Source: a virus | DNA: 64,000 nt | Virus record (IMG/VR): IMGVR_UViG_3300028569_000019 | Location: 32,780-96,779 of that record | Strand: one strand, 5' to 3' | In this document: positions 2,853-64,000 of the stretch, piece by piece | Position numbering within the stretch: position 1 is the first letter of the stretch | Layout of the letters: each line of letters starts with the position of its first letter | The notes under the pieces: model-generated | What the model was told of the DNA's origin: nothing | The model's database searches: none | The model's input: only the letters and a program-made list of their open reading frames with translations | Translations under genes and position numbers: made by a program

Positions 2853-2869
2853 TAATTATATATAATAAT

Positions 2870-3337: not shown

Positions 3338-3339
3338 TT

Positions 3340-10800: not shown

Positions 10801-12500
10801 TAGGAAATTTGGATAAAATCAAAGTTTTAAAAGACCCACTTGATAATCAATATTTTGATGAGCATTCCTATAATTTAGACTCAATATCAATACCAAATAA
10901 GGAAGATGTTTATTCCAATTTGTTTTATTTATGGAGTTTTGATACGCCTGTAGATTTGTATTCACCTTCATCTATCCGTACATCTGTAGATAATCAAAAT
11001 ATTTATTATCAGACACAATTCTTTGCTTATAATTTTGGTCAAAAAGAAAAATATTTTAGTTATCCAACTTGTTCCAATGTATTGATAAATCAATTTCCAT
11101 ATCAGTTTGATAAAATCAATGTTAAACAAACTATAAATACAAATAATTTTGGGCCAAATTATAAGATTAACAGTAAGATAAACAAAATAACAGAAACTGC
11201 GTTGTCTAATTTAACACCATACGATTATTCAACACGTATTCAGGACAGTTTGGGTGATGATTCCATCTTATCTGGATTTTTTATAAGTCCATATAACTAT
11301 TTGAATCAAAAAATAGAGAATTTTATAGGTTTAGATGGTATAGCAGATATCATCGGTGAACCTGAAAATCTAACTAAACAAAATTATGTTGGTTTAACTA
11401 CCTTACAACGTGAATTTGGAAAAATCAATGAAAAATATGTATATCCACAAGAATTTTACAGTACGTATAAATTCTATATTGATTTTTCTGTATTTGACGT
11501 TGTACAAAATTTAAAACCAGCTAGATCCAATTTATTAACAGGAGTTTTATTGGAGCCAAGCTTATTTGAACGTAAAAAGTTTAACTATAGAGATGTAGAG
11601 TTTGTAACAAATAATGAATTTAATTTATATTTTAATAATAAAGCTACATTTACATCTTCATTAATAAATACGAACAATACTTCAAGCTTTACTATAGTAA
11701 CTAGTTCACGTGTTAATGACATTACATCTGATAAAAATACATACAACTATTCTCGTCTCGAAATTAAAGATGCAATAGATGATCGTGATTTTATTTATGC
11801 AAAATATGGGAAGTATGTATTTGTTGATCCAAATGGATACAATGTACGTGACACCGTTAATGTATCAAGAAATGATTATTATCAATGCGTTAATAATGAT
11901 GGATTTGTAGTAACATTTACATCTTCGTTTGATGAAGTTCAAGTTATTGGGTCTGGGTCAGGATATTCAACAGGTACATCTGGCACAGCAGGTTCTTCTG
12001 GTACATCTGGTACATCCGGAACATCAGGCACTTCAGGCACATCTGGTACAAACTATATAGGATTTAATGTTCAAGTTACAGGAAGTAAGTACTTAAAAAA
12101 CTACTATAAAGGTGTGTTTAATACAGGATATTCTAATAGACATTTAAGTAAGTTCTCATTTGTTGGAAGTAGAACTAAATATCAAGCAGTAAGTGGTTCT
12201 AAGACGCAACTTTTGAATGGACTAAAGTTGAATTCAAAAGGCGATATTACATATTATACTTATACCAAGGGTAAAAATGATCAAAATAGTACTGTAAATA
12301 GAGATGGCATTACAAATGGAAGTGCGCCTGTTATTACTATACCTGGATTTTTAAGTTTGAATATCGAAACTAATAATGCTCCTATATATGGCGACACAAC
12401 TGGATCAATTGGTAGTCCAGACTCACTATTCACGCAATTACCACTAACCGCTTCTTTACTAACCAGTGCAAGTTTGGAAAGATACATAATGAATTTATAA
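7875..12500 (+). CDS. Very large baseplate/tail fibre protein with LamG-like domain and collagen-like stretch
   Basis: 1541 residues, Asn/Tyr/Ser rich. The N-terminal third probably anchors to the baseplate. Around residues 765-840 a segment (YASRFNGISTIEFSLRFK, KIQLLSKYRNKKSDWNLF) resembles the concanavalin/LamG fold used for carbohydrate binding. At bases 11973-12050 there are consecutive Gly-Thr-Ser triplets (GTSGTAGSSGTSGTSG), a collagen-like stalk that also dominates the gene at 62804. A gp7/gp8-like wedge region could form the N-terminus. Best read as a large baseplate-attached adhesin; receptor unknown. Confidence 0.65.
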   Translation: MPYDYLTINDNDLNKGITSASYLNANLQSLYEQKLVNEDIFYGESDDDLFEFTLYNNNQQLVSFNRVVPSVTYSVLQGSYRDINNVLRSYRFANPFTNIVSYKNDILLHPQFDLNASGVGPGLYYLLYNPVRNIAGNPTNRLVIKEISPSRTEIRLSYAFDTTKNESSRLDAVKITSFADKKYLLLRIYQDLIAIIKNNPIEQDFLLNKDKYNYADICLKLGLKSEAELQEFITSTYVGYNTVIKLNNDTDNAILQTSKFSGVQEQINNFIYTYNNVEFTSEDILESFRIITLKVSQDRVLQKSSINDIDLQNILGLFEQTIYTDWILPQVTNLLENYKTKYYGYYKNALNFDNGNLIKILDHTNYLNPTDDTFNIQVKLDAPLPLQYNVKTTCWISNISIAPIYFKANLFTSKISRKVFLNDINFDVQVNAVNSSTQKFDSNDAFTLDKATIRLKEKYNDLYIDYTDFNNFINYSSAELRTKIAKNKIKDYNQLESVKKSTITSSLNTNALISSSYSQLVNQKTTQQITLLDTFDEYESYLFFNSSSIDDKIDEAITYDSDNYNSLVYQLPEYVKDDSDSADYIKFTAMVGHFFDNILVFIKKFPKAYPISNNDSNYYPKNYIDELLNSFSWNIDIDKFSQSDLNQLYFNNQEIAGYNSASYFDYTKSILNRFANNISSVYKSKGTVNSFEMIRTMFGIPAGIISTREYGSADAFSNRDNYFVYDDIIYMTDFKENNFLNFEHTSSDFIYTTSSYYASGSNINTLTSSVEYASRFNGISTIEFSLRFKSTDYNFGDKIQLLSKYRNKKSDWNLFVKKSKQVESGQLIFEIHPYELGNTTSSLVLNEMPLLNGNIFTVMLKREPIAGDFDKLNISSSKIINQVTPFIIEDDGDFVVEDDNDFVTLASQKTTLTSSYFVNSTKEYIPYVYSLSINQYDGSTKNFSSTKRKIISHTANRNFSSGSYYIGNYSSSVSFIGNLDKIKVLKDPLDNQYFDEHSYNLDSISIPNKEDVYSNLFYLWSFDTPVDLYSPSSIRTSVDNQNIYYQTQFFAYNFGQKEKYFSYPTCSNVLINQFPYQFDKINVKQTINTNNFGPNYKINSKINKITETALSNLTPYDYSTRIQDSLGDDSILSGFFISPYNYLNQKIENFIGLDGIADIIGEPENLTKQNYVGLTTLQREFGKINEKYVYPQEFYSTYKFYIDFSVFDVVQNLKPARSNLLTGVLLEPSLFERKKFNYRDVEFVTNNEFNLYFNNKATFTSSLINTNNTSSFTIVTSSRVNDITSDKNTYNYSRLEIKDAIDDRDFIYAKYGKYVFVDPNGYNVRDTVNVSRNDYYQCVNNDGFVVTFTSSFDEVQVIGSGSGYSTGTSGTAGSSGTSGTSGTSGTSGTSGTNYIGFNVQVTGSKYLKNYYKGVFNTGYSNRHLSKFSFVGSRTKYQAVSGSKTQLLNGLKLNSKGDITYYTYTKGKNDQNSTVNRDGITNGSAPVITIPGFLSLNIETNNAPIYGDTTGSIGSPDSLFTQLPLTASLLTSASLERYIMNL
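11973..12050 (+). repeat. Short collagen-like Gly-x-x coding repeat
   Basis: Nine-base units of the form GGT ACA TCT GGC ACA repeated eight to nine times with synonymous changes, giving Gly-Thr-Ser triplets. The same unit type fills the 3' end of the window. Confidence 0.85.
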
Positions 12501-22606: not shown

Positions 22607-23569
22607 ATGTCCTTTACCGATACCATTTATTTAGAAAAATTTGGCAAATTAACTATCAATATTTCAGATGATGGAATATTTCAAACTATAAACGACGGCT
22701 CTATTAATTGTGAATTCTTAATAACACTAAGAAGTTTGGATTCTAATCTGATTTCAAACGTAATGTATCACCACTGCACAGTTGGATATGATCTATGGAC
22801 ATATAATAACCCTATATATTACATTCAAAATATTGTAAAAAAAATTCATCCTGGTTTTTCTATAGAAATACACGATGTAATTACAAATGATCTTTTGTTT
22901 AGTAAAAATTATCACAGTGCCAAAAAGTTTAGATGTTTAGATTTGAAATCTAAAGATGGAGATGTTACATATCCATCGTATCATACGTTTTTTTATGATG
23001 ATCATTTTCTAGATAATTTTAACATAAAAGACGGAGATGTTGTTTATGATATGGGAGCTAATATAGGAGCATTCTCAATTGCATGTTCAAACTATAATGT
23101 TAAAAAAATATATGCATTTGAGCCACATCCAGAAATATTTGACCACTTAAGCTATAACTTGGACAGATATGGAAAAAATGCAACATCATTTAATAATGCA
23201 ATTGCAGGAACGTTTTCAAAAGTAAAATTTGGTACCAAAGAAACTACCGTTGGATCTAGCATCAGTGACAATGGAACGTTCGAAGTTGATACTATTAATT
23301 TAGAAAAGTTTGTATCTTCTAATAATTTGGAATTGCCAACCTATCTTAAAATCGACATTGAGGGTGCCGAATATGATTTTTTTGAAAATACCAGTGATGA
23401 TTTCTTTAAAAACGTTCGTAGTATATTTTTTGAATTTCACCATAATAACGGCTCAAATGTTTCGAAAATAATTGATAGATTTAAAAATTTAGGATACACG
23501 TTGAGTCACAAAGAAAATGCTTTAGATCATAATCTATCCCATATGAATACCATCTATCTCAATAAGTAA
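22607..23569 (+). CDS. FkbM-family SAM-dependent methyltransferase
   Basis: 320 residues. The C-terminal half has the SAM-binding start DGDVVYDMGANIGAFSIA, then YAFEPHPEIFDHLSYNL and TYLKIDIEGAEYDFFEN, which are the three hallmark blocks of the FkbM family. Members often O-methylate sugars or glycans. The N-terminal 100 residues are a beta-rich extension. It is followed by two glycosyltransferases, so it likely modifies the same glycan or glycosylated protein. Confidence 0.85.
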   Translation: MSFTDTIYLEKFGKLTINISDDGIFQTINDGSINCEFLITLRSLDSNLISNVMYHHCTVGYDLWTYNNPIYYIQNIVKKIHPGFSIEIHDVITNDLLFSKNYHSAKKFRCLDLKSKDGDVTYPSYHTFFYDDHFLDNFNIKDGDVVYDMGANIGAFSIACSNYNVKKIYAFEPHPEIFDHLSYNLDRYGKNATSFNNAIAGTFSKVKFGTKETTVGSSISDNGTFEVDTINLEKFVSSNNLELPTYLKIDIEGAEYDFFENTSDDFFKNVRSIFFEFHHNNGSNVSKIIDRFKNLGYTLSHKENALDHNLSHMNTIYLNK

Positions 23570-23572
23570 ATT

Positions 23573-25585
23573 ATGAAAAAAATATTGTTTATAGCTCCCC
23601 ATCTTTCCACAGGCGGATTACCTCAGTTTTTATTAAAGAAGATACAATCACTAATAAATGATTATGAAGTATATTGTGTAGAGTATGATGATATCACAGG
23701 AGGAGTTTTAGTTGTACAAAGAAAACAACTTCAAAAAATCTGTGGTAAAAGATTTTATACATTATCATCAAATAAGTTTGAGTTATTCAAACTAATCGAT
23801 GACATAAAGCCTGACATTATTCATCTTGAAGAAATGCCTGAGTATTTTATGGATGTTAATTTAGCAACCAAACTCTATAATAAAGACAGAGAATATCTAA
23901 TTGTAGAGACATCCCACGATAGTAGTTTTGATCCTAAAAGAAAAAGAGTTTTTCCAGACCAATTTACCTTTGTCAGTAATTATCAAAAACAAAATCTGGA
24001 ATCTCTTAATGTAAGTACGGATGTTATTGAGTATCCAATTGCGGTTAAATGTAGAAAAAATAGAACTGAAGGTCTGAAGTTTTTGGGATTGGATGAAAAC
24101 AAAAAACACGTATTGCATGTTGGATTATTTACTCCACGTAAAAATCAAAAAGAATTTATAGAATATGCTCGAGCAATGGAAAAAGAAAATGTTCAATTTC
24201 ATTGTTTGGGTAATATGGCTGATAACTTTAAAACCTATTGGCAACCATTATTAGAAAATTTGCCAAAGAATGTAAAAGTTTGGGGTGAAAGAAAAGATGT
24301 AGAAAACTTCTATAGTTGTATGGATCTGTTTCTGTTCACCAGTAGAGGACACGCTACCGATAAAGAAACAGCTCCAATCGTAATTAAAGAAGCTATATCT
24401 TATAATATACCATCTTTATTATATAACTTGCCTGTTTATCTTAATCGATATAAGGTATTTGAGACTATCAAGTATTTGGACGAAACCAATTTTAATCGTA
24501 ATGTAAAACTTATAAAAAATCAATTAGGAATGATCTCTGATTTGGAGGTTGTCAATTTGGTTTCAAATAAAACCGCAAGTAAAGATACAGTGGTTGTTAT
24601 ATCAACACATCCAAATTTTAAAGCTATAGAAGATACAACATTAGAATCAATTAACCAAGCTAAAAAAGCTGGTTATAAAGTTTTATTGACATCACACTAT
24701 CCAGCTAGTGTAATCTTACAACAAGCAGCTGACCACTATGTTTATGACTCAAATAATCCTATTTTAAAACACAACTTTTATAATAGATGGACGTATGATT
24801 CAAATAATACCAAGATTAATTTGTATTTCCCACCATCTGATTGTGACAATTATCACGGACTCGCTGTATTAATAAATTATTATAATGGTATATCTTTAGC
24901 AAACAAAATTGGATATAAAAATGCAATTTGTTTCAATTATGATATGATTATTTCAGATTCGGATTTTTCAAAGTTATATGACGTTGATGAAATACTCTCA
25001 AATAAGAAAGCATTTTTCTTTTATGATAAGGCGCTTGAGGGAGATACATTTAAAACAGTATTTCACGGAATTAATACTCAATTCTTTTTGGAAAATTTTG
25101 AATATTATACACCTGAAACGTATATGAATTTTGTTACCACAAAGAATATTTCAAACGGGTTAGAACAATTTTATTATAATAGACTAATTTCTCATAAAAA
25201 TATTTTACATATAGATTATGCAAATAATGAAGAAACATATTTGAGTAATAGTAAGAATAATTTATTTTCAATGGTGGAATATCTATCTGTATTGAGAATG
25301 AAAAATGTAAATAAGTTTGGTGTTTTAACTTATATCAATAATAAGATAGATGGTAGAATAAATGAAATCATAATTAAAAAGAACGGAGAGATTATTAACA
25401 AATACTCTTACGACGTAGTGGACAAAGTTTGCTTTTATTTGGCAAATGATTTTGAAAATGATAACTTTTATGAAATTGAAAACAGTTTGTACGATCAAAA
25501 TAAAATTTTATTGAAGAGTTATAAAAAGTCGTTTAGACGGTTAGAAGACATAGATATTAACGGTTCTATTGAAGTTACACAATGA
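23573..25585 (+). CDS. Two-domain glycosyltransferase (GT4 plus C-terminal GT-A-like domain)
   Basis: 670 residues. Residues 1-320 have a GT-B layout: IAPHLSTGGLPQFLLKKIQ at the N-terminus, GLFTPRKNQKEFIEYARA and an ETAPIVIKEAISYNIPSL donor-site segment with Glu, as in GT4. Residues about 340-560 form a second domain that may be a GT-A transferase (VVVISTHPNFKAIEDTTLES, FNYDMIISD). It overlaps the next gene by 4 nt (ATGA). Substrates are unknown; the target may be a virion or cell-surface glycan. Confidence 0.7.
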   Translation: MKKILFIAPHLSTGGLPQFLLKKIQSLINDYEVYCVEYDDITGGVLVVQRKQLQKICGKRFYTLSSNKFELFKLIDDIKPDIIHLEEMPEYFMDVNLATKLYNKDREYLIVETSHDSSFDPKRKRVFPDQFTFVSNYQKQNLESLNVSTDVIEYPIAVKCRKNRTEGLKFLGLDENKKHVLHVGLFTPRKNQKEFIEYARAMEKENVQFHCLGNMADNFKTYWQPLLENLPKNVKVWGERKDVENFYSCMDLFLFTSRGHATDKETAPIVIKEAISYNIPSLLYNLPVYLNRYKVFETIKYLDETNFNRNVKLIKNQLGMISDLEVVNLVSNKTASKDTVVVISTHPNFKAIEDTTLESINQAKKAGYKVLLTSHYPASVILQQAADHYVYDSNNPILKHNFYNRWTYDSNNTKINLYFPPSDCDNYHGLAVLINYYNGISLANKIGYKNAICFNYDMIISDSDFSKLYDVDEILSNKKAFFFYDKALEGDTFKTVFHGINTQFFLENFEYYTPETYMNFVTTKNISNGLEQFYYNRLISHKNILHIDYANNEETYLSNSKNNLFSMVEYLSVLRMKNVNKFGVLTYINNKIDGRINEIIIKKNGEIINKYSYDVVDKVCFYLANDFENDNFYEIENSLYDQNKILLKSYKKSFRRLEDIDINGSIEVTQ

Positions 25586-27726
25586 AAATTATACAAGTTA
25601 ATCTGGGGTTATTGCCTATTCCACCTAATGGATGGGGAGCAATTGAAAAAATTATTTGGGATTATTATCAATTATTAAATAATAAGGGATTGGAATGTCA
25701 GATAAAATATCTCAATGAAATTCAATATGCAGATGACGTAATTGTACACGTTCACGTAGCAAATCTTGCCAACGAGTGTCATAAACGTGGCATACCATAT
25801 ATATTCAGTTTACACGATCATCACGCTTACTTGTATGGTAAAAACTCCGTTGTTTATAAAGAGAATCTAGAAGCAATTGAGAACAGTGTAATATCAACTT
25901 GTCCGGCCAAATATTTAGTTGATTATTTTGGTAGTAAGAAACTGCGTTACTTTTCGCATGCGGTTAATACAACTGTATTCAAATGTAGAAATAATAAAAA
26001 TCCAGTAAATAAATTGTTATGTGTTGCAAATAATGGATATGCCAATGACAAGTCCTATGATAGAAAAGGATTTACATATGCAATCAAAGCTGCTAAAGAA
26101 TTAGGATATCCAATCACAATCGCTGGTCCGTCGAATAATAAAAAATTCTTTGATACGTTGGATGCTGAATTAAATCAGTATGATAAACTTACTAAATTAT
26201 TTGATTTAAATGAAGAACAATTAATCGATTTATACAATGACCACTCTATATTTTTACATCCATCTGAATTGGAAGCTGGACATCCAAATTTAACTTTGTT
26301 AGAAGCAATGAGTTGTGGTTTACCTATAGTAGGCACATTTGAAGAAAAATCATATGATGGTATGATTGTTGTCGAACGTAATGTAGAACAAATAAAATCC
26401 GCTATACAAAATATAGTCAGTGACTACGACACATATAAAAATAAAGCACTTCAAACTGCTAATGTAAATTCTTATTTTAATCGTGTAGATCAACTAATCG
26501 ATTTATACGATCAGTATACTGAAAGATTATTTGCTATCCGACATATTAATGTTTATGAAAATATAAAAAAGAATAACAAGAGTATTAAAACAAATGCTGT
26601 ATTTAAGTATTCTTTTAACGATAATGCAAAAATAGAAGTTGATAATCCAATTGATACAGAACAAAGTTTTCACGTTACATTCTATAATAGTGACGATAAT
26701 ACTATTAAATACGAAACAGATTTAAAACACAATTGGTGGGGAAGTTGTAATTTTACATATTACATTCCTTACGAAGTTCATATCAAGGATAATAAGACAA
26801 ATGAATTGGTAGAAACTTATAAATTCAATTTGAAAAATAAGAAGGTATTAGTTGAATATGAAAGTTTTTCTTTGGGAGATCAATTGGCTTGGATGCCTAT
26901 CATTGAACAATTCAGAAAGAAACACGAATGCGATCTTTATGTAAAGTTGCCTTTAAAAAACATTTTTGAAAGCAAATATCCTGAAATTAAGTTTGTTAAC
27001 CATAACAAATATGTATCAGATGCTTTTGCTACTTACAAGTTGGGATTTTATGTTGATGAAAATGGGACAAATAATGATAGATGTAAATCTGATCCTAGAA
27101 AACAACCATTGCAAAAAATAGCAAGCGATTATTTGGGGTTGCCATACGAACCAGAGTTACCTCTAATTGACTTTAAAGTAAAAGAACGTCCACTAAAGAA
27201 ACGATATGTTACTATTGCAACGCAAAGTACGTGTCAAGCAAAGTATTGGAATAATAAAGGTGGGTGGGAAAAAGTAGTGGAATATCTAAAGTCAAAAGAC
27301 TTTGAAGTAATTTGTATCGATAAACATAAAGTATTTGGTAATGGAAAAGATTGTGTCAACAATATGCCATCAAATGCTTTGGATTATACAGGAGATAAAC
27401 CTCTTGAAGATCGTATGAATCAAATATACCACAGTGAATTTTTTATTGGACTGCCATCTGGTTTATCTTGGTTAGCTTGGGCAGTTAAAAAGCCAGTGGT
27501 ATTAATCAGTGGGTTTTCTTATCCATACACCGAATTTGAGACCCCATATAGAGTACAAAATCATTCAGTATGTACAGGATGTTGGAATGATTCGTTATTT
27601 GACAAGGGAGATTGGAAGTGGTGTCCAAAATCAGATAAAAGAGAAGAATTTGAATGTACCAAACAAATAACTCCAAAAATGGTTATTGATGTTATTGATC
27701 AATTATTAATAGAACAAAATATTTAA
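25582..27726 (+). CDS. GT4 - autotransporter heptosyltransferase-like (BAHT/TibC) fusion
   Basis: 714 residues. The N-terminal half is GT4 (PPNGWGAIEKIIWDYYQLL; LHPSELEAGHPNLTLLEAM). The C-terminal half resembles the TibC/BAHT family: SLGDQLAWMPIIEQF, STCQAKYWNNKGGWEKVVE, FIGLPSGLSWLAWAVKKP, and a cysteine set CxxCWND...WCP...FEC (Cys664, Cys667, Cys681, Cys692) placed as in the iron-finger of that family. BAHT enzymes attach heptose to Ser of autotransporter adhesins. The phage protein could O-glycosylate Ser/Thr-rich fibre repeats; that target is inference. Confidence 0.78.
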   Translation: MKIIQVNLGLLPIPPNGWGAIEKIIWDYYQLLNNKGLECQIKYLNEIQYADDVIVHVHVANLANECHKRGIPYIFSLHDHHAYLYGKNSVVYKENLEAIENSVISTCPAKYLVDYFGSKKLRYFSHAVNTTVFKCRNNKNPVNKLLCVANNGYANDKSYDRKGFTYAIKAAKELGYPITIAGPSNNKKFFDTLDAELNQYDKLTKLFDLNEEQLIDLYNDHSIFLHPSELEAGHPNLTLLEAMSCGLPIVGTFEEKSYDGMIVVERNVEQIKSAIQNIVSDYDTYKNKALQTANVNSYFNRVDQLIDLYDQYTERLFAIRHINVYENIKKNNKSIKTNAVFKYSFNDNAKIEVDNPIDTEQSFHVTFYNSDDNTIKYETDLKHNWWGSCNFTYYIPYEVHIKDNKTNELVETYKFNLKNKKVLVEYESFSLGDQLAWMPIIEQFRKKHECDLYVKLPLKNIFESKYPEIKFVNHNKYVSDAFATYKLGFYVDENGTNNDRCKSDPRKQPLQKIASDYLGLPYEPELPLIDFKVKERPLKKRYVTIATQSTCQAKYWNNKGGWEKVVEYLKSKDFEVICIDKHKVFGNGKDCVNNMPSNALDYTGDKPLEDRMNQIYHSEFFIGLPSGLSWLAWAVKKPVVLISGFSYPYTEFETPYRVQNHSVCTGCWNDSLFDKGDWKWCPKSDKREEFECTKQITPKMVIDVIDQLLIEQNI

Positions 27727-27806: not shown

Positions 27807-30800
27807 ATGGCAATACAAGAAGGCGGTAGATTCGCCCCAACACAAAATATAGTAAGCCCAGGTGTATTCACACGTGAAAATGACCTCTCCGGTCTGGCTC
27901 AAGGAGTAGCAAACATTGGAGGAGCAATTATAGCTCCATTCGCTGATGGACCAGCGTTTTTTCCAAATACAATAACCGACGTAGCTGACTTGGAAACAAG
28001 ATTCGGTGTCGCTGATGGTGTGTATTATGGACCATACACAGCCAAAGAATATCTACTACAACAAGGCATCGTTACTGTTGTTCGTGTAGGTGGTCTAACT
28101 GGTTACTGGCAAAAGAATCCATTGATTGTATATGCTCAACCAGGTATCTGGGACAGAGACGCTGATAAAGGTGCTATCACCACAGCTTCATTTATGTATA
28201 TTGACACTGCAGATTATACATCAAATGTAATATATCAACAAACTAGTACTCCTATTAGTATTACCGGTTCAGCTGCAATTAAAGGTTCAGTTGGTAGTGG
28301 TATAACAGGATCTGCTACATTTACAAGAGCAACAACCGCTGAAATTGCTTCTTTCTTAGCTACAGTTGGAAGTGTTGTTGGAATTAATTCACTTTCAGCT
28401 TCTTTGTCAATTTCATCCAGCTTTGGCAAAGTATTTAAAGTGGTTTCTACAAGACATTATGAATTGTTTAGCAGTTCAGTAGTAGCTAGAGGTGGTAAAG
28501 TAGCAAAACTAGGTAGTTCCACCGACCACTCATTGGCCGCATTTGATTTTGAAAAATCAAATATAAATGGTAGTGTTACAGTTGGCGGCGCATCATCAGC
28601 TAAGCTAAAATTAACATTTGATACCAGCACCTCCAATAGTTATTTGACATCTTCTTTTAATGCTCCAAATACATTCGGACTAGTGTTTGCTAAAGCCGCA
28701 AATCAAAATACATCCTTTGCAACCGCAAGTTTAAGTGGAGCAGGATTAAGTTCTTCTATTCAGTTGACACAACGTATTGATATTTCAACAATGACAATCA
28801 GTGGGTCATTGAATGTTAAATTTGGATCCGCAACTCTAACAAGTGGCGTAACCGCAGATGACGTTGATGGTGTAGGTAAGTTGAGTGGTAGTATCTTGTA
28901 CGCCAATAAAACAGTTGATATCGGTTCAGTTTCTTCTGGATTATTGGTACGTAAATTCAGTACTGCAACTCTTGCCAATGGCAATGCAAAACCAGTCGGT
29001 ACTAAATTCTTCTTGTTAACTTCAAGTCTACAAGGTTCAAATATTGATGCCGAAACAGCAATTGCTACCGCTTTTGATGAAAGCACAACAACTGTTGATC
29101 TAGTAAGTTCATCTTACTTCAATGGTAATATCGCTTACAATCTAACAAACTTCAATGTGGAAGCAGCTACAACACTAACACTTCAAAGTGGTAGTTTCCA
29201 TTCACTACGTGGTGTTGGAACTTGTGTAGCTGGTCTACAAGTAAGAGGTGTAGTAAGTGGTGATTTCGGTAAATATACCGGTGGATTTACAAGTCAAGAT
29301 AATGCAAGTCCAGATCAATGTAATCCAGTACTAACAGGTCGCCAAAAGTTGATCTTGTCAGTATTAGCAAATACTCAAAATGCTTCATCACAATTCACCA
29401 GTGATTATCAAGTATTTGGTTTCAATACCTCAACATTAAGCCAACTAACAAGTAGCACATTCCCATATAAGGGTGTAATTAATCCTAATGAAAATGTTTA
29501 CAACTTGGCATTGAAATATAGCTATACAAATCCAGCTGGTGGCACTAGTGCCGGTACATATGGTTACTACGACTTCAGTTTGAATGAAAATGATAATAAC
29601 TATATCAAAGAAGTATTCGGTGTAGATCCAACCGTTGGTAATCCTAACAAACAAGTTGCTGGTCAAAAAGTTGAAGCTGCTTATAACTACGTTCTATTCG
29701 AAGATAGCATCAAGAAGTTCGTAGCTGAAAAGACAAGTGCTTATGGATGGAGACTACAAGTAGGTACAAGTAATCTATCAGGAAGTTCTATTGTCGGTGA
29801 ACCTCTAAAGTTCGTTGATCAATATAGTACTGATTTGAATAACGGCGATAGTCAATTCAGCATCACAAATGCTTCTACCCCTTGGATCTACAGTCAAAAG
29901 ATTGCTCCATTCAAAGGTAGTGCTGATGTAGCCGCTCAACCAACTAAGTTCAAGTTGTTCAAAGTTCACACCTTGAGCGATGGTACACTAAGTAACACTA
30001 AGTTTAAGATTGAAATTAGCAACGTTAAGTTGGCTGGTACTGTTCCAGGCAGCGACTGGGGTAGTTTCACACTAGCAGTACGTGCTTATAGTGATACTGA
30101 TAAGAAGCCAAAGTATTTGGAAATCTACCAAAACTTGAATTTGGATCCAGAGTCTGCAAATTATGTTGCTCGTAGAATTGGTAACAGATATGCATATATC
30201 ACTTACGCTGGTAAATTGATTCAATTTGGTGATTTCACCACATTGAGCAAATATATCAGAATTGAAGCCAGTGACGTTTCTTACCCAGTAAGTTGCGTAC
30301 CATACGGATTCGAATCATATAGTACACCAATTGATAGTACCGCAAGTAACTATGTACCTGCTATACAATACAGTAAAGCAAGTATCTATGGTCTAGGTCC
30401 TGGTAAGTATCCATCTGGTACAGTATTTGGAAGTGTTCCAGGCACCGACAGTGAAATTCAAGCTCTATACCCAACATCTTCATTTGGTGTAGGTGTAGAC
30501 AATAACACCAAACAATACTTCAAACCACTACCATACTATGGTACATCTGATAGCAATGGTACTAATATCGACTTCGATTTAGAAGATAAGGTATGGGGTA
30601 CAACAAATAGTAAATTCTATGCTCAAGGCACATACGTGAGTACTGGATCACTACTATCTCCAACATTGAGTGGTAGTATTCCAAGTGTTTACGATGCTGT
30701 AAATGAATCTACATATGTCAAACTACGTAAGTTTGTACTTGGATTCCAAGGTGGATTTGAAGGTCAATGGCCAGCAATTCCAATCAATGTAGGTGGTAAT

Positions 30801-31724
30801 ATTACAGCTGGTAATACACAAGGTCTAGATTGTACAAATATCAATAGCCCAGGTAGTATCGCTTATAAGCAAGCAATTGCTGCAATCGGTAATCCTGATG
30901 AATTTGATATCAACTTGATCGTAACTCCAGGTATCTTCCGTGAACAACACAGTTATGTTACCGAATTGGTAATTGATATGTGTGAAACTCGTCAAGATTG
31001 TTTCTACATTATGGATAACGTAGTGTTCCCAGCAAGCAATCAAACTGTAGGATTGATTGATGCAGCAATTAATACTGTTGCTACAATTGACAGTAACTAT
31101 GTAGGTACTTATTATCCTTGGGTTAAGATCCTAGATACTAATACCAACAAGATTATTAGTGTTCCTCCTTCAGTAGTATTGCCAGCAGTTTATGCTGCTA
31201 ACGATAACTCCGCTGCTGAATGGTACGCTCCAGCCGGTCTAAACCGTGGTGGTATTCCAACCGCTGTACAAGTACTTGATCGTGTAACTCACAGTGAACG
31301 TGATACCTTGTATGAAGGTCGTGTAAATCCAATCGCAGCATTCCCTGGTCAAGGTATTTGTGTATGGGGTCAAAAGACTCTACAAATCGCTCCAAGCGCT
31401 TTGGATCGTATCAATGTACGTCGTTTGTTGATCAACTTGAAGAAGTTTATCGCAAGTTCAAGCAACTACTTGGTATTCGAACAAAACGTTGCTTCTACAA
31501 GAAATCGTTTCTTGAGTATTGTAACTCCATATTTGGAATCAGTACAACAACGTAACGGTATCTACGCATTCCAAGTCAAGATGGATGCTGAAAACAATAC
31601 TCCTGACTTGATTGATAGAAATATTCTATATGGTCAAATCTTTATCCAACCAACCCGTACTGCTGAATTCATTATCCTCGATTTCAGCATACTCCCAACG
31701 GGAGGGGCTAGTTTTAATGCTTAA
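27807..31724 (+). CDS. 18: Tail sheath protein gp18, enlarged
   Basis: 1305 residues, about twice T4 gp18 (659). The N-terminus NIVSPGVFTRENDLSG and GPAFFPNTITDVADLETRFG, and the C-terminus NVRRLLINLKKFIASSSN, LVFEQNVASTRNRFLSIV, RTAEFIILDFSILPTGGASF, are the conserved sheath ends. The middle (about residues 130-480) is a Ser/Gly/Thr-rich expansion, probably outward-facing domains on the sheath surface. It forms the contractile tube around the tail. The gene stands alone between a promoter region and a strong terminator, and prefers frequent codons as expected for a major structural gene. Confidence 0.92.
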   Translation: MAIQEGGRFAPTQNIVSPGVFTRENDLSGLAQGVANIGGAIIAPFADGPAFFPNTITDVADLETRFGVADGVYYGPYTAKEYLLQQGIVTVVRVGGLTGYWQKNPLIVYAQPGIWDRDADKGAITTASFMYIDTADYTSNVIYQQTSTPISITGSAAIKGSVGSGITGSATFTRATTAEIASFLATVGSVVGINSLSASLSISSSFGKVFKVVSTRHYELFSSSVVARGGKVAKLGSSTDHSLAAFDFEKSNINGSVTVGGASSAKLKLTFDTSTSNSYLTSSFNAPNTFGLVFAKAANQNTSFATASLSGAGLSSSIQLTQRIDISTMTISGSLNVKFGSATLTSGVTADDVDGVGKLSGSILYANKTVDIGSVSSGLLVRKFSTATLANGNAKPVGTKFFLLTSSLQGSNIDAETAIATAFDESTTTVDLVSSSYFNGNIAYNLTNFNVEAATTLTLQSGSFHSLRGVGTCVAGLQVRGVVSGDFGKYTGGFTSQDNASPDQCNPVLTGRQKLILSVLANTQNASSQFTSDYQVFGFNTSTLSQLTSSTFPYKGVINPNENVYNLALKYSYTNPAGGTSAGTYGYYDFSLNENDNNYIKEVFGVDPTVGNPNKQVAGQKVEAAYNYVLFEDSIKKFVAEKTSAYGWRLQVGTSNLSGSSIVGEPLKFVDQYSTDLNNGDSQFSITNASTPWIYSQKIAPFKGSADVAAQPTKFKLFKVHTLSDGTLSNTKFKIEISNVKLAGTVPGSDWGSFTLAVRAYSDTDKKPKYLEIYQNLNLDPESANYVARRIGNRYAYITYAGKLIQFGDFTTLSKYIRIEASDVSYPVSCVPYGFESYSTPIDSTASNYVPAIQYSKASIYGLGPGKYPSGTVFGSVPGTDSEIQALYPTSSFGVGVDNNTKQYFKPLPYYGTSDSNGTNIDFDLEDKVWGTTNSKFYAQGTYVSTGSLLSPTLSGSIPSVYDAVNESTYVKLRKFVLGFQGGFEGQWPAIPINVGGNITAGNTQGLDCTNINSPGSIAYKQAIAAIGNPDEFDINLIVTPGIFREQHSYVTELVIDMCETRQDCFYIMDNVVFPASNQTVGLIDAAINTVATIDSNYVGTYYPWVKILDTNTNKIISVPPSVVLPAVYAANDNSAAEWYAPAGLNRGGIPTAVQVLDRVTHSERDTLYEGRVNPIAAFPGQGICVWGQKTLQIAPSALDRINVRRLLINLKKFIASSSNYLVFEQNVASTRNRFLSIVTPYLESVQQRNGIYAFQVKMDAENNTPDLIDRNILYGQIFIQPTRTAEFIILDFSILPTGGASFNA

Positions 31725-31822: not shown

Positions 31823-31830
31823 TATTGTTT

Positions 31831-33336
31831 ATGACTGAACGAGGTAAAAAAATTAGAGAAGCATTTTTTAAAAAATACGGAGTATATCATCCATCACAGC
31901 TGCCTGGCGTTAAAGAAAAAATAAAACAAAAACGAGAGAGTGGTGCATATGATAATATGATTACGAAGATGAAAAAAACAAAATTGGAAAAATATGGCGA
32001 TGAAAATTATTCAAACTTAGAAAAAGGAAAAAAAACAAAATTAGAAAAATACGGGGATGAAAATTTCAATAACAGAGAAAAAATGTTAAAAACCAATGTT
32101 GAAAAATATGGTATGAATGTATCTCCAAATACTCTTGAAAAAACAAAACAAAGAGCTAATAATGGAGAACTCGGTTTTAAGTCCGAGAAATACAAACAAT
32201 ATTTGGAGAATAATAATATTGACAATGTATCTCAATTATCCAGTGTAAGAGAAAAAAGAAAACTTCATAAAATTCAAGAATCTTTACATAATATTTTTGA
32301 AGGAAATCGATTGAAAGGTATAGTTGTCCCATTATTTAATAAAGATGAATATGTAGGTACGGAATATAATAATTTATATAAATTTAAATGTAGTGTATGT
32401 CATAACGAATTTGAAGATAATTTGTATTCTGGTAATATACCTAGATGTTTAATCTGCAATCCACACAATAGATTTAAATCTACAATTGAAACTGAAATAT
32501 TGAGTTTTTTACATTTACACGACGTTGTGACTAAACATCACGATAGAAATATATTAGACGGAGAAGAAATTGATATTTTAGTACCTCATTTGAATTTAGG
32601 CATAGAATGTGATGGAATATATTGGCACAGTGAACTTGCTGGTGGTAAAGATAAACATTATCATTTACATAAAACTAAGTTGTCACTTGATAAAAATATT
32701 CAATTGATGCATATATGGGATTGGGAATGGCGATGCAAACAAGATATAATAAAAAGCATTTTATTAAGTAAGATTGGTAAGTCCAAAAGAATATTTGCAC
32801 GTAAATGTGAAATAAAGCAAGTGATCAATGATGAAAAATCTGCATTTTTGATTGATAACCATATACAAGGAAATGACACATCATCTATTAGATTGGGATT
32901 ATACCACAATGATGTTTTGGTATCACTAATGACATTTGTTAAATCTAGATATGACAAAAAATATCAATATGAGTTATCTAGATATTGTAATATATTAAAT
33001 ACAAATGTAATAGGAGGCGCTTCTAAATTGTTCAATTATTTTATAAAAAATTACGATGTAAATTCGATTGTAACATATAGCGACCGAAGATTGTTTACTG
33101 GTAATTTATATAAACAAATTGGTATGTCGTTTGTAGATAACACTCCTTCTGGATATCACTATTTTCATAAAAATAAAGGAGTACCAATTGAAAGAAGCCA
33201 TTTTCAAAAACATAAATTAAAAGAAAAGCTTGAAAAATTTGATATTAATTTAAGTGAATGGCAAAATATGCAAATTAATGGCTATGATAGAATTTGGGAT
33301 TGTGGACATATGAAATTTAACTGGAATCGTAAATGA
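31831..33336 (+). CDS. Homing endonuclease with Vsr/PD-(D/E)XK-like nuclease core
   Basis: 501 residues from the ATG with the SD. The N-terminal 130 residues carry repeated LEKYGDEN-type helices (KTKLEKYGDENYSN, KTKLEKYGDENFNN), DNA-binding repeats seen in phage homing endonucleases. A Cys-pair zinc ribbon follows (CSVCHNEF...CLIC), then a nuclease core EIDILVPHLNLGIECDGIYWHSE with acidic residues in the ExD/ExD layout of very-short-patch-repair-like enzymes. The C-terminal domain continues to WDCGHMKF. It is a free-standing mobile gene in the gap after the sheath terminator. Confidence 0.75.
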   Translation: MTERGKKIREAFFKKYGVYHPSQLPGVKEKIKQKRESGAYDNMITKMKKTKLEKYGDENYSNLEKGKKTKLEKYGDENFNNREKMLKTNVEKYGMNVSPNTLEKTKQRANNGELGFKSEKYKQYLENNNIDNVSQLSSVREKRKLHKIQESLHNIFEGNRLKGIVVPLFNKDEYVGTEYNNLYKFKCSVCHNEFEDNLYSGNIPRCLICNPHNRFKSTIETEILSFLHLHDVVTKHHDRNILDGEEIDILVPHLNLGIECDGIYWHSELAGGKDKHYHLHKTKLSLDKNIQLMHIWDWEWRCKQDIIKSILLSKIGKSKRIFARKCEIKQVINDEKSAFLIDNHIQGNDTSSIRLGLYHNDVLVSLMTFVKSRYDKKYQYELSRYCNILNTNVIGGASKLFNYFIKNYDVNSIVTYSDRRLFTGNLYKQIGMSFVDNTPSGYHYFHKNKGVPIERSHFQKHKLKEKLEKFDINLSEWQNMQINGYDRIWDCGHMKFNWNRK

Positions 33337-37178: not shown

Positions 37179-37839
37179 TACTGGTAAAAATATAAAACTA
37201 AAAACGGGTAAATCTAATTTAGATATAGTTAGAAGTTATTTAAACGGGGAAAAGGCATTCGTACAAGTTGGCTATGATGCCAATTTAGAGAATAATAAAC
37301 GCAAAGAAGGTGACGAATGGGAGGACAGTCAAGGTCACAAATGGGTTTGGAAGAATAAAAGTAAACGTAGAGTTTCAAAACGTGCCACGATTATTAATGA
37401 ACAACGTTGTAAAACGTGTAATATGGACGTTCGATGGGGCAATTATTTGGACGACCGAGTTTGGCCCAAAACTGGATATTGTTATGATTGTTTTATCAAT
37501 TTTCAAACTGAACTAAAAATGATGGGAATGTTTGAAGTTTACAACGAACTACAGGATCTTAAAAACGAACGTAGTATTTTAGAAGATTACAAGAAAAAGT
37601 TTGAAGAAAGTAAAAAGTTCTGCGAAGAAAATAAAGATAAAGATGTTACATTTCTTGAGGAAGATGGATCGTTTGAAAAGTGGGATGGTAATATAGATTA
37701 CAATAAAATATTTGAAGATTTGACAAAGGATATAGGTGTCATTGACGTTCGATTGGAAGAATTGAATCTTAAAATAAAAGAGTACGAAGAGAAATATGAG
37801 TCAGCTAAATTTAAGAGAAATAATAAAGCAGGAGTATAA
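37168..37839 (+). CDS. Zinc-ribbon, coiled-coil protein upstream of terminase
   Basis: 223 residues. A four-Cys ribbon (CKTCNMDVRWG...GYCYDCF, about residues 78-108) is followed by long charged helices (ERSILEDYKKKFEESKKFCE; DVRLEELNLKIKEYEEKYE). It overlaps the large terminase gene by 44 nt in another frame. The position matches that of a small terminase subunit (gp16), which is also helical, but the zinc ribbon is not a usual feature of gp16, so this is only a suggestion. Confidence 0.55.
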   Translation: MKTNTGKNIKLKTGKSNLDIVRSYLNGEKAFVQVGYDANLENNKRKEGDEWEDSQGHKWVWKNKSKRRVSKRATIINEQRCKTCNMDVRWGNYLDDRVWPKTGYCYDCFINFQTELKMMGMFEVYNELQDLKNERSILEDYKKKFEESKKFCEENKDKDVTFLEEDGSFEKWDGNIDYNKIFEDLTKDIGVIDVRLEELNLKIKEYEEKYESAKFKRNNKAGV

Positions 37840-38629
37840 GAAGTGTATTGAGGATCCTATATACTTCATGAAGAAGTATGTTAAGATACAACATCCTATT
37901 AGAGGTACTGTTGGATTTGAACTTTATCCATTCCAAGAAGAAGCTTTACAAAACTTTGTTGATAATCAATTAAACATCGTTCTTAAGAGTCGTCAGATGG
38001 GTATCAGTACCCTTACAGCCGCTTATAGTTTGTGGTTAATGACATTTCATAATGATAAGAACATTCTTTGTATTAGTATTACGCAAGAAACAGCAAAAGA
38101 AATTGTCACTAAGGTAAGATTTGCGAATGACAATCTTCCGAGTTGGTTAAAAGTTCCTTGTGTAGAAGATAATAGATTATCATTGCGATTAAAGAACGGA
38201 TCTCAAATCAAAGCGGTTTCATCTGCTGGTACAGCTGGTCGTTCTTCTGCACTATCATTACTAATCATCGACGAAGCCGCATTTATCGATGGCATTGAAG
38301 AAATTTGGCTGTCGTCTCAATATACACTGTCTACTGGTGGTAGAGCTATTATACTAAGTACGCCGAACGGCGTTGGCAATTTCTTCCATAAAATTTGGGT
38401 TGAATCTGAAGAAGGCAAGAATAATTTTAAAACAATTAGATTACCTTGGCATTTACACCCAGAAAGAGATCAAACGTGGAGAGATAAACAAACTGAGTTG
38501 TCAGGAGTAAAAGGTGCAGCACAAGAATGTGATTGTCTATGGGGAGCGTCTACGATTAGAGTCAGAGATAAAACATCAGGAAAAGAATTTGATATTTCTT
38601 TAGAAAAATTGTATTCCGGAGAATTGTAA
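37796..38629 (+). CDS. 17: Large terminase gp17, N-terminal extein plus N-half of a split intein
   Basis: 277 residues. Residues 1-246 are the packaging ATPase: Walker A LKSRQMGIST (about 63-72), Walker B LLIIDEAAF (Asp159-Glu160) and STPNGVGNFFHKIWV coupling motif. The extein ends in AAQECD and then a Cys begins an intein block, CLWGASTIRVRDKTSGKEF, ending at a stop after 31 residues. The C-half is encoded by the gene at 39400. Trans-splicing would join Asp246 to the Cys of CDFSTSGNQVV, giving a 529-residue terminase. Confidence 0.88.
   Translation: MSQLNLREIIKQEYKKCIEDPIYFMKKYVKIQHPIRGTVGFELYPFQEEALQNFVDNQLNIVLKSRQMGISTLTAAYSLWLMTFHNDKNILCISITQETAKEIVTKVRFANDNLPSWLKVPCVEDNRLSLRLKNGSQIKAVSSAGTAGRSSALSLLIIDEAAFIDGIEEIWLSSQYTLSTGGRAIILSTPNGVGNFFHKIWVESEEGKNNFKTIRLPWHLHPERDQTWRDKQTELSGVKGAAQECDCLWGASTIRVRDKTSGKEFDISLEKLYSGEL
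38521..38535 (+). repeat. 15-nt direct repeat, copy 1
   Basis: ACAAGAATGTGATTG spans the extein-intein junction. An identical copy lies at 38643-38657 at the start of the endonuclease gene. Confidence 0.9.
38534..38626 (+). mobile_element. N-intein of split TerL intein (31 residues)
   Basis: Starts at the catalytic Cys (codon 38534) in the terminase conserved junction ECD|CDFSTSG. The GASTIRVRD block is a typical intein A block. An unusually short N-half, as in the atypical AceL-TerL split intein from Ace Lake metagenomes. Confidence 0.88.
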
Positions 38630-38642
38630 TCATATGTATTAT

Positions 38643-38657
38643 ACAAGAATGTGATTG
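38643..38657 (+). repeat. 15-nt direct repeat, copy 2
   Basis: Identical to 38521-38535 but read in a different frame, just upstream of and overlapping the possible GTG start of the endonuclease at 38651. Probable footprint of insertion at the terminase homing site. Confidence 0.9.
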
Positions 38658-39403
38658 CAACCCATATGTGTGTACCTAAAAATTATGTAGCAGTCGGTTG
38701 GGATAAAATCAAGAAACAATTAAGTTGTGAAACTGATTTATATTCGTGTGAAGAAACCAAATCCGAATTGTTAAATGAAAATCATTATAAATTTTTATTT
38801 GGTCGTGCGAAGAATAGAACTCTGATAAAACAAAACCCAAAACTATATAAATCAATTCTTTTTCATACGCGTATTCTAGAAAATGCATTTAAACAACAAC
38901 AAAGTTACAAGGGATGGTATAATTTTTCTTATAGGATTCGTTTTATTGTTGAACATAATTACGATTTGACAAAATTAAAATGTCAATGTGGGAAGAAAAT
39001 AACATGGACGAAATATTGTCGTAGATGTCCGGAATATCATAAAACTCAAACTGGTAAAGTACATACTCCAGAAACAAAACAAAAAATGAGAGTATCCACA
39101 TTAAAGTATTTATCGGAAATAAAAGGTCAGATTATACCTCGTTATAATAAAAAATCAATACAACTAATTGAGGAATTTGGTAATACACATGGATATACAT
39201 TTAGACACGCTGAAAATGGCGGTGAAGTTTTTCTTAAAGAACTTGGTTATTTTCTAGATGCATATGATGAGAAAAATAATGTTGTGTTAGAAATATACGA
39301 AAAACGACACTACAAAAATGGTAAATTGAAACAAAGAGATTTTCAAAGAGAAAATGAAATTAAAAATTTGTTAGGATGTAAACTATTTACAATAGACATA
39401 TGA
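38651..39403 (+). CDS. Free-standing Vsr-like (EDxHD) homing endonuclease between split intein halves
   Basis: Up to 250 residues from GTG at 38651; ATG at 38666 is an alternative start. A CxC...CxxC cluster (CQCGKKITWTKYCRRCP) precedes the nuclease core: ENGGEVFLKELGYFLDAYD, NVVLEIYEKRHY and KQRDFQRENEIKNLLGCKLF. This E/D/H layout is that of the endonuclease family described inside fractured genes with split inteins. It is in the same frame as the terminase N-gene, one stop away, and overlaps the C-gene by 4 nt (ATGA). It likely cuts intein-less terminase genes. Confidence 0.8.
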   Translation: MIATHMCVPKNYVAVGWDKIKKQLSCETDLYSCEETKSELLNENHYKFLFGRAKNRTLIKQNPKLYKSILFHTRILENAFKQQQSYKGWYNFSYRIRFIVEHNYDLTKLKCQCGKKITWTKYCRRCPEYHKTQTGKVHTPETKQKMRVSTLKYLSEIKGQIIPRYNKKSIQLIEEFGNTHGYTFRHAENGGEVFLKELGYFLDAYDEKNNVVLEIYEKRHYKNGKLKQRDFQRENEIKNLLGCKLFTIDI

Positions 39404-39741
39404 TCGATCCAAATGTTAAACTGAATACTAAGTTTCAGATTTTGACTCCAACAGGTTACCAAGATTTTTTTGGAATGCGAAAAATAAAAAAGGATTGTTA
39501 CTATAAAATATTATTGAGTAATGGCAAAATAATAAAATGTTCGGACAATCATCCTTTTATATATAAAAATTCAGAACTACGCTCTCACGATATCAAAATC
39601 GGATCGAAAATATCGGGAGTAGATGGTGTAGATGTAGTTGTCATAACCATAGAAAAATTCGAAAATTCCATTGATTTATATGATATAGTAAACGTCTCCG
39701 ACGGCAATGTTTTTAATGTAGACGGAATTGTTTCACATAAT
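39400..39741 (+). mobile_element. C-intein of split TerL intein (114 residues)
   Basis: Runs from the initiator Met to the terminal His-Asn. It contains the usual B-like block (CSDNHPF, with His), and F/G blocks ending VDGIVSHN before the +1 Cys. Together with the 31-residue N-half it has all the parts of a mini-intein. Confidence 0.88.
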
Positions 39742-62803: not shown

Positions 62804-64000
62804 ATGTCAACATTGAAGAAAGATCCATGCGAAGTTTCACCAATAAAATTGGACAATGCTTTGTATGACTATAAAAAATTAACAGCGACTTTTAAAGATC
62901 CTACTACAGAACTGTTTCTTAAAATAATCGATGAATTACGCAAAATAATTTATTGTAGAACCAGTTCCAGATATTTTAACAATGTTGCAACAAAACAAAT
63001 ACCCTGCGATCAAAAAGCAAAAGTTTGGGTATTTGATCATAATCTAAATTCGGATCTGGTATTAATTCAAACATATGATGAAAATTTTAACCAGTTAATA
63101 CCTGAAACAATAGTTTTAAATAATGATAATACTGCTACAATAACTTTTTCATTTGATGCATGTGGTTATATCATAGGTGTAAGCGGTGACATAAGTACAA
63201 GCGGTACATCTGGAACAGGTACAAGTGGTACTAGCGGTACATCTGGAACAGGTACAAGTGGTACTAGCGGTAGTAGTGGTGCAAAAGGTTCAGCTGGATC
63301 AAGTGGTACCAGTACCACAAGCGGTACCAGCGGTATAAGCACATCTTCAGGAACAAGTGGAAGTAATGGTACCAGTGGAACAAATGGAGAAGGAGGTAGT
63401 AGTGGTGAAAGTGGAGAAATTGGTTCCAGCGGCAGCAGCGGTGAAAATGGAAGCAGTGGTACAAACGGCAGTAGTGGCATTTTAGGAGGCACCAATGGTA
63501 CAAGTGGTACTAGTACCACAAGCGGTACAACCGGAACAAGCGGCACCACCGGAACAAAAGGAAGATCTGGCACAAGTGGTAACGATGGAACAAGTGGAAG
63601 TAGCGGCACAAGTGGTACTAGTGGATCAAGTGGAAGTAGCGGTACGAGTGGAAGTAGTGGTTCGTCTGGAAGTAGCGGTACGAGTGGTACGTCAGGAAGC
63701 AATGGTACATCAGGCACCAGTGGCAGTAGTGGCACAAGCGGATCAAGCGGCAGCAATGGTACATCTGGTACAAGTGGTACAATCGGCACAAGTGGCACAA
63801 ACGGTACCAGTGGAAGCAGTGGGTTGAGTGGAAGCAGTGGAAGTAGTGGATCAAGTGGTACAAGTGGCACAAGTGGTAAAAGTGGAAGTAGTGGTACGAG
63901 TGGAAGTAGTGGCACAAGTGGAACTAACGGCACCAATGGTTCTAATGGAACAAGTGGTACAAGCGGTACAAGTGGTACTTCAGGTACAAGCGGAAGCAGC
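62804..64000 (+). CDS. Collagen-like tail fibre/adhesin (3' end missing)
   Basis: 399 codons open to the window end, starting STLKKDPCEVSPIKLDNALY. About 125 residues of a globular head-binding domain lead into Gly-x-x repeats (GTSGTSGSSGAKGSAGSSG) that continue to the end, with Ser and Thr at nearly all x positions. Such collagen-like stalks form trimeric fibres. Ser/Thr density makes it a candidate O-glycan acceptor for the phage glycosyltransferases. The receptor-binding tip must lie beyond the window. Confidence 0.85.
   Translation, partial: MSTLKKDPCEVSPIKLDNALYDYKKLTATFKDPTTELFLKIIDELRKIIYCRTSSRYFNNVATKQIPCDQKAKVWVFDHNLNSDLVLIQTYDENFNQLIPETIVLNNDNTATITFSFDACGYIIGVSGDISTSGTSGTGTSGTSGTSGTGTSGTSGSSGAKGSAGSSGTSTTSGTSGISTSSGTSGSNGTSGTNGEGGSSGESGEIGSSGSSGENGSSGTNGSSGILGGTNGTSGTSTTSGTTGTSGTTGTKGRSGTSGNDGTSGSSGTSGTSGSSGSSGTSGSSGSSGSSGTSGTSGSNGTSGTSGSSGTSGSSGSNGTSGTSGTIGTSGTNGTSGSSGLSGSSGSSGSSGTSGTSGKSGSSGTSGSSGTSGTNGTNGSNGTSGTSGTSGTSGTSGSS
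63190..64000 (+). repeat. Collagen-like Gly-Ser/Thr triplet repeat array
   Basis: Roughly 90 nine-base units coding for Gly-x-x triplets with Ser, Thr and Asn, drifting between ACA/AGT/AGC codons. It continues past the edge. Confidence 0.9.

What the first reader, a model, noticed from the sequence alone, without database searches (positions are those of the whole stretch)
25582..27726. Phage-encoded BAHT/TibC-like heptosyltransferase with iron-finger cysteines
The C-terminal domain keeps the BAHT motifs and four cysteines with the right spacing, fused to a GT4 domain. BAHTs glycosylate autotransporter adhesins; a phage copy next to an FkbM methyltransferase and a second glycosyltransferase suggests a protein O-glycosylation pathway.
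Basis: partly seen in the sequence, partly recalled or inferred. Interest (0 to 1): 0.6.

Follow-up and report, generated by a model that had tools for sequence, protein, structure and literature searches.

The report
Phage sugar-transferase for collagen-like tail fibres
A giant-phage gene encodes a two-headed sugar-attaching enzyme related to those that coat bacterial adhesins with heptose, and genome comparisons suggest that in phages it decorates long serine-rich, collagen-like fibres on the virus particle instead, which is inferred and not yet shown.

Summary
ORF 25582-27726 (+, 714 aa) fuses a GT4 glycosyltransferase to a TibC-like (BAHT) domain: NCBIfam TIGR04414, 347 bits against a cut-off of 200; AlphaFold model matches TibC at Z 41.9, 2.1 A over 365 residues. 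Iron and activity are untested.

Comparison adds more. At least 582 viral stretches encode relatives. In a tree of sampled rows the phage enzymes separate from 25 bacterial BAHTs including TibC; three bacterial-labelled rows fall among them. The autotransporter repeat that bacterial BAHTs modify was not found in 26 phage contigs. Instead BAHT genes accompany long Gly-(Ser/Thr)-Ser collagen-like fibres: 22 of 50 fibre-bearing contigs carry BAHT against 0 of 50 pattern-picked contigs, and 15 of 21 lie within about 10 kb. One clade places HldE-like kinase and nucleotidyltransferase genes between BAHT and fibre. Two Methylobacter genomes pair BAHT with a GTSG-repeat protein.

Best reading: O-glycosylation (probably heptosylation) of serines on collagen-like fibres. 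The window phage has such a fibre ORF (62804-64000), 35 kb away, running off the contig.

The parts
25582..27726 (+). GT4-BAHT fusion protein, 714 aa
25582..26571 (+). N-terminal GT4 glycosyltransferase half (residues 1-330); a separate ~315-aa neighbouring gene in several marine phages
   Evidence: PF00534; GT4/BshA fold Z about 25; separate gene in L201, L204, L208, L212, L216-L218, L220
26587..27702 (+). TibC-like BAHT half (residues 336-707)
   Evidence: TIGR04414 347 bits; TibC Z 41.9
26878..26880 (+). Asp433, aligned with the TibC catalytic base Asp110
   Evidence: alignment; role in TibC from PMC4358343
27229..27243 (+). Thr550 and Lys554, aligned with TibC Thr226 and Lys230 (beta-phosphate contacts)
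27412..27471 (+). Arg611, Pro625, Trp630, aligned with TibC Arg286 (adenine), Pro300 (D,D-heptose selectivity), Trp305 (heptose O4)
27571..27657 (+). iron-finger cysteines Cys664, Cys667, Cys681, Cys692
   Evidence: invariant in 44 of 44 scorable rows
22607..23569 (+). FkbM-family methyltransferase (likely glycan cap)
   Evidence: TIGR01444, PF05050; FkbM fused to BAHT in L041
23573..25585 (+). second GT4 glycosyltransferase, 670 aa
   Evidence: PF00534; relatives upstream of BAHT in many other loci
27807..31724 (+). tail sheath protein, 1305 aa, Ser-rich expanded N-terminal part; second acceptor candidate
   Evidence: phrog_23; composition
62804..64000 (+). collagen-like fibre ORF: about 125-aa N-domain then Gly-(Ser/Thr/Asn)-Ser repeats; runs off the contig end; favoured acceptor
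11973..12053 (+). short GTSGTSG tract (27 aa) inside the 1541-aa ORF 7875-12500

Best explanation
The gene encodes a two-domain glycosyltransferase of a large T4-like phage, acting in the host cytosol. Its TibC-type half transfers an ADP-activated heptose (or close relative) from the host pool to serine side chains of a phage structural protein while virions are made. The most likely acceptor is the Gly-X-Ser/Thr collagen-like fibre; the neighbouring tail sheath is second. The fused GT4 half, the second GT4 and the FkbM methyltransferase probably extend and cap the glycan. Shown here by computation: enzyme family, fold, conserved catalytic and metal-ligand residues, gene order and co-occurrence. 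Inferred: activity, the sugar, the acceptor, iron binding, ring assembly and benefit to the phage.
For: TIGR04414 347 bits and TibC fold Z 41.9, 2.1 A over 365 residues. Cysteines and Asp/Thr/Lys/Trp invariant where scorable. The strand-loop-strand acceptor was not found in 26 phage contigs but is abundant in 3 of 4 bacterial BAHT genomes. Ser/Thr-rich GXY repeats occur in 29 of 42 BAHT+ viral contigs, reversed-pattern control 0. Of 50 GXY+ viral contigs over 20 kb taken from a GXY pattern scan, 22 carry BAHT over cut-off; of 50 contigs found by two unrelated patterns, 0; Fisher p 2e-8, though the sets are not length-matched. In 15 of 21 GXY+BAHT+ contigs a GXY tract lies within about 10 kb of BAHT, 7.6 expected, p 3e-4; for those over 40 kb 13 of 17, p 8e-6. 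In GenBank phages, GXY-array DNA queries gave matches covering 80% or more only in the 735-kb phage (LR756501/LR756503) and in Mel-JY01 itself, which are three of the four BAHT+ records. Clade-B phages have GT4-BAHT, cupin, HldE-II-like and HldE-I-like genes next to the GXY fibre. Two Methylobacter genomes have a GTSG-repeat protein 41 nt upstream of a BAHT; the one put in the tree falls in the phage clade.
Against: No biochemical evidence. In the window phage the fibre gene is 35 kb from the BAHT, whose adjacent gene is the tail sheath. No HldE or GmhA hit in the 96.8-kb record, so the donor must come from the host or an unsequenced part. HldE-like proteins score below NCBIfam cut-offs. Co-occurrence may partly reflect shared lineage of large T4-like aquatic phages: in a set picked by terminase, 16 of 29 contigs had BAHT, 9 GXY, 5 both, with no visible association. 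The random set is smaller in bases (1.1 against 3.7 Mb). The window thumb tip lacks the Phe-Val pair that TibC needs for its ring. GXY arrays are not expected to form beta-helices like TibA. Two Erwinia phages have a partial GXY match and are not among the BAHT-positive records.
Confidence: 0.6

Rival explanations
1. Same enzyme, but the acceptor is the tail sheath (or another Ser-rich virion protein) rather than the GXY fibre.
For: The sheath is the next gene in the window lineage and follows the BAHT directly or with one gene between in many marine phages; the window sheath has a Ser-rich expanded region.
Against: Sheath adjacency was not seen beside the BAHT in clades B and C or in Methylobacter, where a GXY protein is near instead; sheaths in several marine relatives are only about 570-670 aa and lack the large expansion.
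Confidence: 0.15
2. The enzyme modifies host surface molecules (LPS, capsule or an adhesin) to change adsorption or exclude other phages.
For: BAHTs are distant relatives of LPS heptosyltransferases (PF01075); FkbM and GT4 genes are common in surface-glycan clusters (established knowledge).
Against: The genes lie among structural genes and beside virion components in several clades; the closest family is protein-directed; the known adhesin repeat was not found in the phage contigs.
Confidence: 0.12
3. TibC-like enzyme that uses a different sugar nucleotide, not ADP-heptose.
For: Arg286 (adenine contact) is Leu, Val or Ala and Pro300 is Gly or Ser in several phage clades; HldE-like kinase and NTase score below cut-off.
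Against: The window protein keeps Arg611, Pro625 and Trp630, the residues tied to ADP-D,D-heptose in TibC; the best NCBIfam matches of the clade-B and clade-C genes are HldE domains I and II, ahead of ribokinase and glycerol-3-phosphate cytidylyltransferase.
Confidence: 0.2
4. DNA-modifying glycosyltransferase (hypermodified phage DNA).
For: Glycosyltransferase genes in phages are often assigned to DNA glucosylation (as in PMC12619734).
Against: The family, fold and linkage all point to protein; no base-modification gene was recognised among the immediate neighbours.
Confidence: 0.03

Closest known systems
TibC / AAH, bacterial autotransporter heptosyltransferases (BAHT, TIGR04414; PDB 4RAP, 4RB4)
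   Same: Fold (Z 41.9), 37% identity over the domain, catalytic Asp, donor-binding Thr/Lys/Arg/Trp, Pro for D,D-heptose, iron-finger cysteines, short strands predicted in the thumb region.
   Different: Fused to a GT4 domain; sits in a separate, mostly phage branch of the tree; thumb tip residues differ; partner is not a strand-loop-strand autotransporter but most often a GXY fibre.
HldE (RfaE) heptose-7-phosphate kinase / heptose-1-phosphate adenylyltransferase
   Same: Best NCBIfam matches of two genes beside the BAHT in clade-B phages (131.7 and 90.3 bits).
   Different: Two separate short proteins, below curated cut-offs; not found in the window record.
Mycobacteriophage virion glycosylation (Freeman et al. 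2023, as cited in PMC12619734)
   Same: Precedent for glycans on capsid and tail-tube subunits of phages.
   Different: Different hosts and acceptors; the original paper was not read here, only the citing text.
SdgB, glycosyltransferase of Ser-Asp repeat adhesins (PDB 7VFM)
   Same: GT4-type fold like the N-terminal half (Z 22.5); glycosylates Ser in a low-complexity repeat (established knowledge).
   Different: Only about 16% identity; no BAHT domain.

Membership tests
BAHT (TIGR04414, TibC/AAH) | Score above the curated family cut-off | tested here: met
   347.3 bits against 200
BAHT (TIGR04414, TibC/AAH) | TibC fold with N-terminal beta-barrel and GT-B-like core | tested here: met
   AlphaFold model, TibC Z 41.9, 2.1 A, 365 residues, model 338-713
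BAHT (TIGR04414, TibC/AAH) | Catalytic Asp110 and donor residues Thr226, Lys230, Arg286, Trp305 | tested here: met
   All present in the window protein
BAHT (TIGR04414, TibC/AAH) | Four iron-finger cysteines | tested here: met
   C664, C667, C681, C692; Cys in 44 of 44 scorable rows
BAHT (TIGR04414, TibC/AAH) | Thumb tip hydrophobic pair (Phe265-Val266) for ring assembly | tested here: inconclusive
   Two short strands predicted at 584-586 and 592-594, but the tip reads GKDCV and the loop is longer
BAHT (TIGR04414, TibC/AAH) | Bound ferric iron and dodecameric ring | not testable with these tools
   needs purified protein
BAHT (TIGR04414, TibC/AAH) | Partner autotransporter with strand-loop-strand repeats (functional part of the name) | tested here: not met
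   TIGR04415 in 0 of 26 phage contigs (fragments), 12-43 copies in 3 of 4 bacterial genomes. So filed as a TibC-family enzyme by sequence and fold, not as an autotransporter heptosyltransferase
BAHT (TIGR04414, TibC/AAH) | Heptosyl transfer from ADP-heptose to Ser | not testable with these tools
   no assay
HldE halves (TIGR02198, TIGR02199) in clade-B and clade-C phages | Score above curated cut-off | tested here: not met
   131.7 of 345 and 90.3 of 181.5 bits in L587, 113.7 of 181.5 in L588; best-matching families, so called HldE-like only

The most novel reading that the evidence does not exclude
A phage-borne branch of the TibC family, in some phages with its own HldE-like donor genes, hyper-O-heptosylates serine-rich collagen-like (Gly-Ser/Thr-Ser) virion fibres: a phage-encoded glycosylation system for collagen-like proteins, distinct from the animal and mimiviral collagen glycosyltransferases.
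Probability: 0.5. Interest if true: 0.8.

Novelty: new variant of a known kind. Interest (0 to 1): 0.68.

Why it matters
BAHTs are described as enzymes of bacterial adhesins. A large phage branch with a different linked partner would show that phages glycosylate their own fibres with a dedicated enzyme, give a function to the very long serine-glycine fibre genes at which this contig and several others end, and mean that automatic naming by TIGR04414 (autotransporter heptosyltransferase) is probably misleading for phage copies. Fibre glycans could affect host range, protection from proteases and recognition. One isolated phage (Mel-JY01) makes the claim directly testable.

Tried and rejected
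Searched the 26 phage contigs for the bacterial acceptor repeat TIGR04415: none. GmhA (TIGR00441): none in 26. HldE in the window record: none. Sheath as sole acceptor: not next to BAHT in clades B and C. Pattern control GATGAYGARAAYTGGAARGA gave only 7 contigs, four of which were put in the control set; AATTGGGARCCNGAYGA supplied the other 46. A terminase-chosen T4-like set showed no clear GXY-BAHT association; it is fragmentary and was chosen near BAHT phages. tblastn with a GXY protein query found nothing, not even its own source record, because of the low-complexity filter. Nine literature searches: no listed title or abstract reports a phage BAHT; only two papers were opened, so this is no proof of absence.
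Full report
What is there. The window is bases 32780-96779 of a 96,779-base virus record. Neighbouring genes are T4-like: tail sheath, portal, terminase and major head protein by PHROGs. ORF 25582-27726 (+) gives 714 aa. Residues 161-286 match GT4 (PF00534); residues 336-707 match TIGR04414 with 347 bits and TibC with E 7e-76. AlphaFold2 on 29 window and locus sequences gave mean pLDDT 82.8, pTM 0.53; against the PDB the C-terminal half matches TibC (Z 41.9, rmsd 2.1 A, 365 residues, 37% identity) and the N-terminal half GT4 enzymes such as BshA (Z about 25).

Active site and iron finger. TibC uses Asp110 as catalytic base, Thr226, Lys230, Arg286 and Trp305 for ADP-heptose, Pro300 for D,D-heptose selectivity, and Cys339, 342, 358, 370 for iron (PMC4358343). 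The alignment held 45 rows: the window, 43 distinct locus proteins and TibC. Columns for Asp110 and the four cysteines were scorable in 44 rows and for Thr226, Lys230 and Trp305 in 43; each is invariant there. The window keeps Arg611 and Pro625 as well; three phage clades (L044, L050, L059 types) have Leu or Val at the Arg286 position and Gly at Pro300. The thumb tip is not conserved.

A phage branch. A tree of 72 sampled rows puts 44 phage rows plus three bacterial-labelled ones (two MAG contigs, L081 and L090, and Methylobacter L109) on one side of a 100/100 branch and 25 bacterial rows including TibC on the other. Row sampling was mine, and the bacterial set was fetched with phage queries. 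L081 looks like phage, with a sheath gene. Many phage copies carry the GT4 half; most bacterial copies are 400-460 aa. In marine phages the GT4 half (about 315 aa) and the BAHT half (about 400 aa) are adjacent separate genes, followed by the sheath and preceded by another GT and, in L204, L212 and L217, a GXY ORF. So the window gene looks like a fusion of two neighbours.

The partner. [quoted passage not shown] TIGR04415 repeats were absent in 26 phage contigs and present 12-43 times in three of four bacterial genomes. BAHT loci of two divergent clades instead lie beside ORFs of up to 2018 aa made of GTSGSSG-type triplets. A 5-triplet Ser/Thr GXY pattern occurs in 29 of 42 BAHT+ contigs, backwards control zero. 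Starting from the GXY side, 80 contigs were listed by pattern; I took 50, all of 20 kb or more, and found BAHT over cut-off in 22; one of the 50 (L351) was already known to be BAHT+ when chosen. The control is 50 contigs drawn from two unrelated patterns (46, four), with larger contigs preferred: 0 of 50. Fisher p is 2e-8, but control contigs are shorter (1.1 against 3.7 Mb); at the GXY-set rate 6.7 would be expected. Twenty-one BAHT regions were examined; 15 have a GXY tract within about 10 kb, 7.6 expected from contig lengths with a 24-kb span, p 3e-4; with a 30-kb span p is 0.004. A terminase-chosen set did not show the association.

Independent pairs. In 50,697 GenBank phages only four records have BAHT: LR756501 and LR756503 (same size, 735 kb), LR756504 and Microcystis phage Mel-JY01. 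Matches to GXY-array DNA covering 80% or more were seen only in LR756501, LR756503 and Mel-JY01, the last with its own array as query. In Mel-JY01 the annotated antisense CDS 739-2298 overlies a plus-strand GXY reading frame open from 2 to 2998, and the GT4-methyltransferase-BAHT gene starts at 4750. Two Methylobacter genomes have a GTSG-repeat protein with a signal-like N-terminus 41 nt upstream of a BAHT.

The sugar. In clade-B phages BAHT is followed by a cupin, an HldE-II-like nucleotidyltransferase and an HldE-I-like kinase, then the GXY fibre on the other strand. Best NCBIfam matches are TIGR02199 (90.3 bits) and TIGR02198 (131.7 bits), both under cut-off. HldE-I-like hits occur in 9 of 26 BAHT+ contigs, beside the BAHT in three and far from it in six by my reading of coordinates; since this kinase family rings in all 14 control genomes, weak hits alone mean little. 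GmhA was in none. The window record has neither, so host ADP-heptose is assumed.

Window specifics. The window phage has a GXY fibre ORF at 62804-64000, open at the contig end, 35 kb from the BAHT, and a 27-aa GXY tract in ORF 7875-12500. Its BAHT is followed by the sheath and preceded by FkbM and a second GT4.

Verdict. The pathway idea is supported; the acceptor most consistent with the comparisons is a collagen-like fibre, at moderate confidence, with the sheath as the chief rival. No step of catalysis, sugar identity, metal or ring formation has been shown.

Noticed in passing
37796-40593: Terminase large subunit looks split by an intein in two pieces: N-part 37796-38629, a separate ORF 38651-39403 between, C-part 39400-40593 with a typical intein end (VDGIVSHNC) before the terminase sequence resumes.
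   Followed up: partly
40620-43568: Portal protein has PHROG HNH-endonuclease matches at residues 187-278, suggesting an intein or inserted endonuclease.
   Followed up: no
63166-63936 (-): Antisense ORF of PLVPLVP repeats is most likely spurious, opposite the GXY fibre; the same kind of false gene (WWT39287.1, 739-2298) is annotated in Mel-JY01.
   Followed up: yes
L065:2049-3707 (record bases 2049-3707, outside the window): Carbamoyltransferase of the NodU/TobZ type (PF02543, PF16861), possibly another glycan-modifying gene of this phage.
   Followed up: partly
L066:5354-6844 (record about 25354-26844, outside the window): Fibre with GSFTGSFSGS repeats and a C-terminal Peptidase_S74 chaperone domain.
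   Followed up: partly
L056:6234-9083: A GT4-GT25-BAHT triple fusion; GT25 is the family of collagen galactosyltransferases (own knowledge).
   Followed up: no
G101 and G104, L199: A second, shorter BAHT copy directly follows the full-length one.
   Followed up: no
31825-33336: ORF 503 aa with weak DUF7487 and REase_MTES_1575 matches, probably a homing endonuclease.
   Followed up: no
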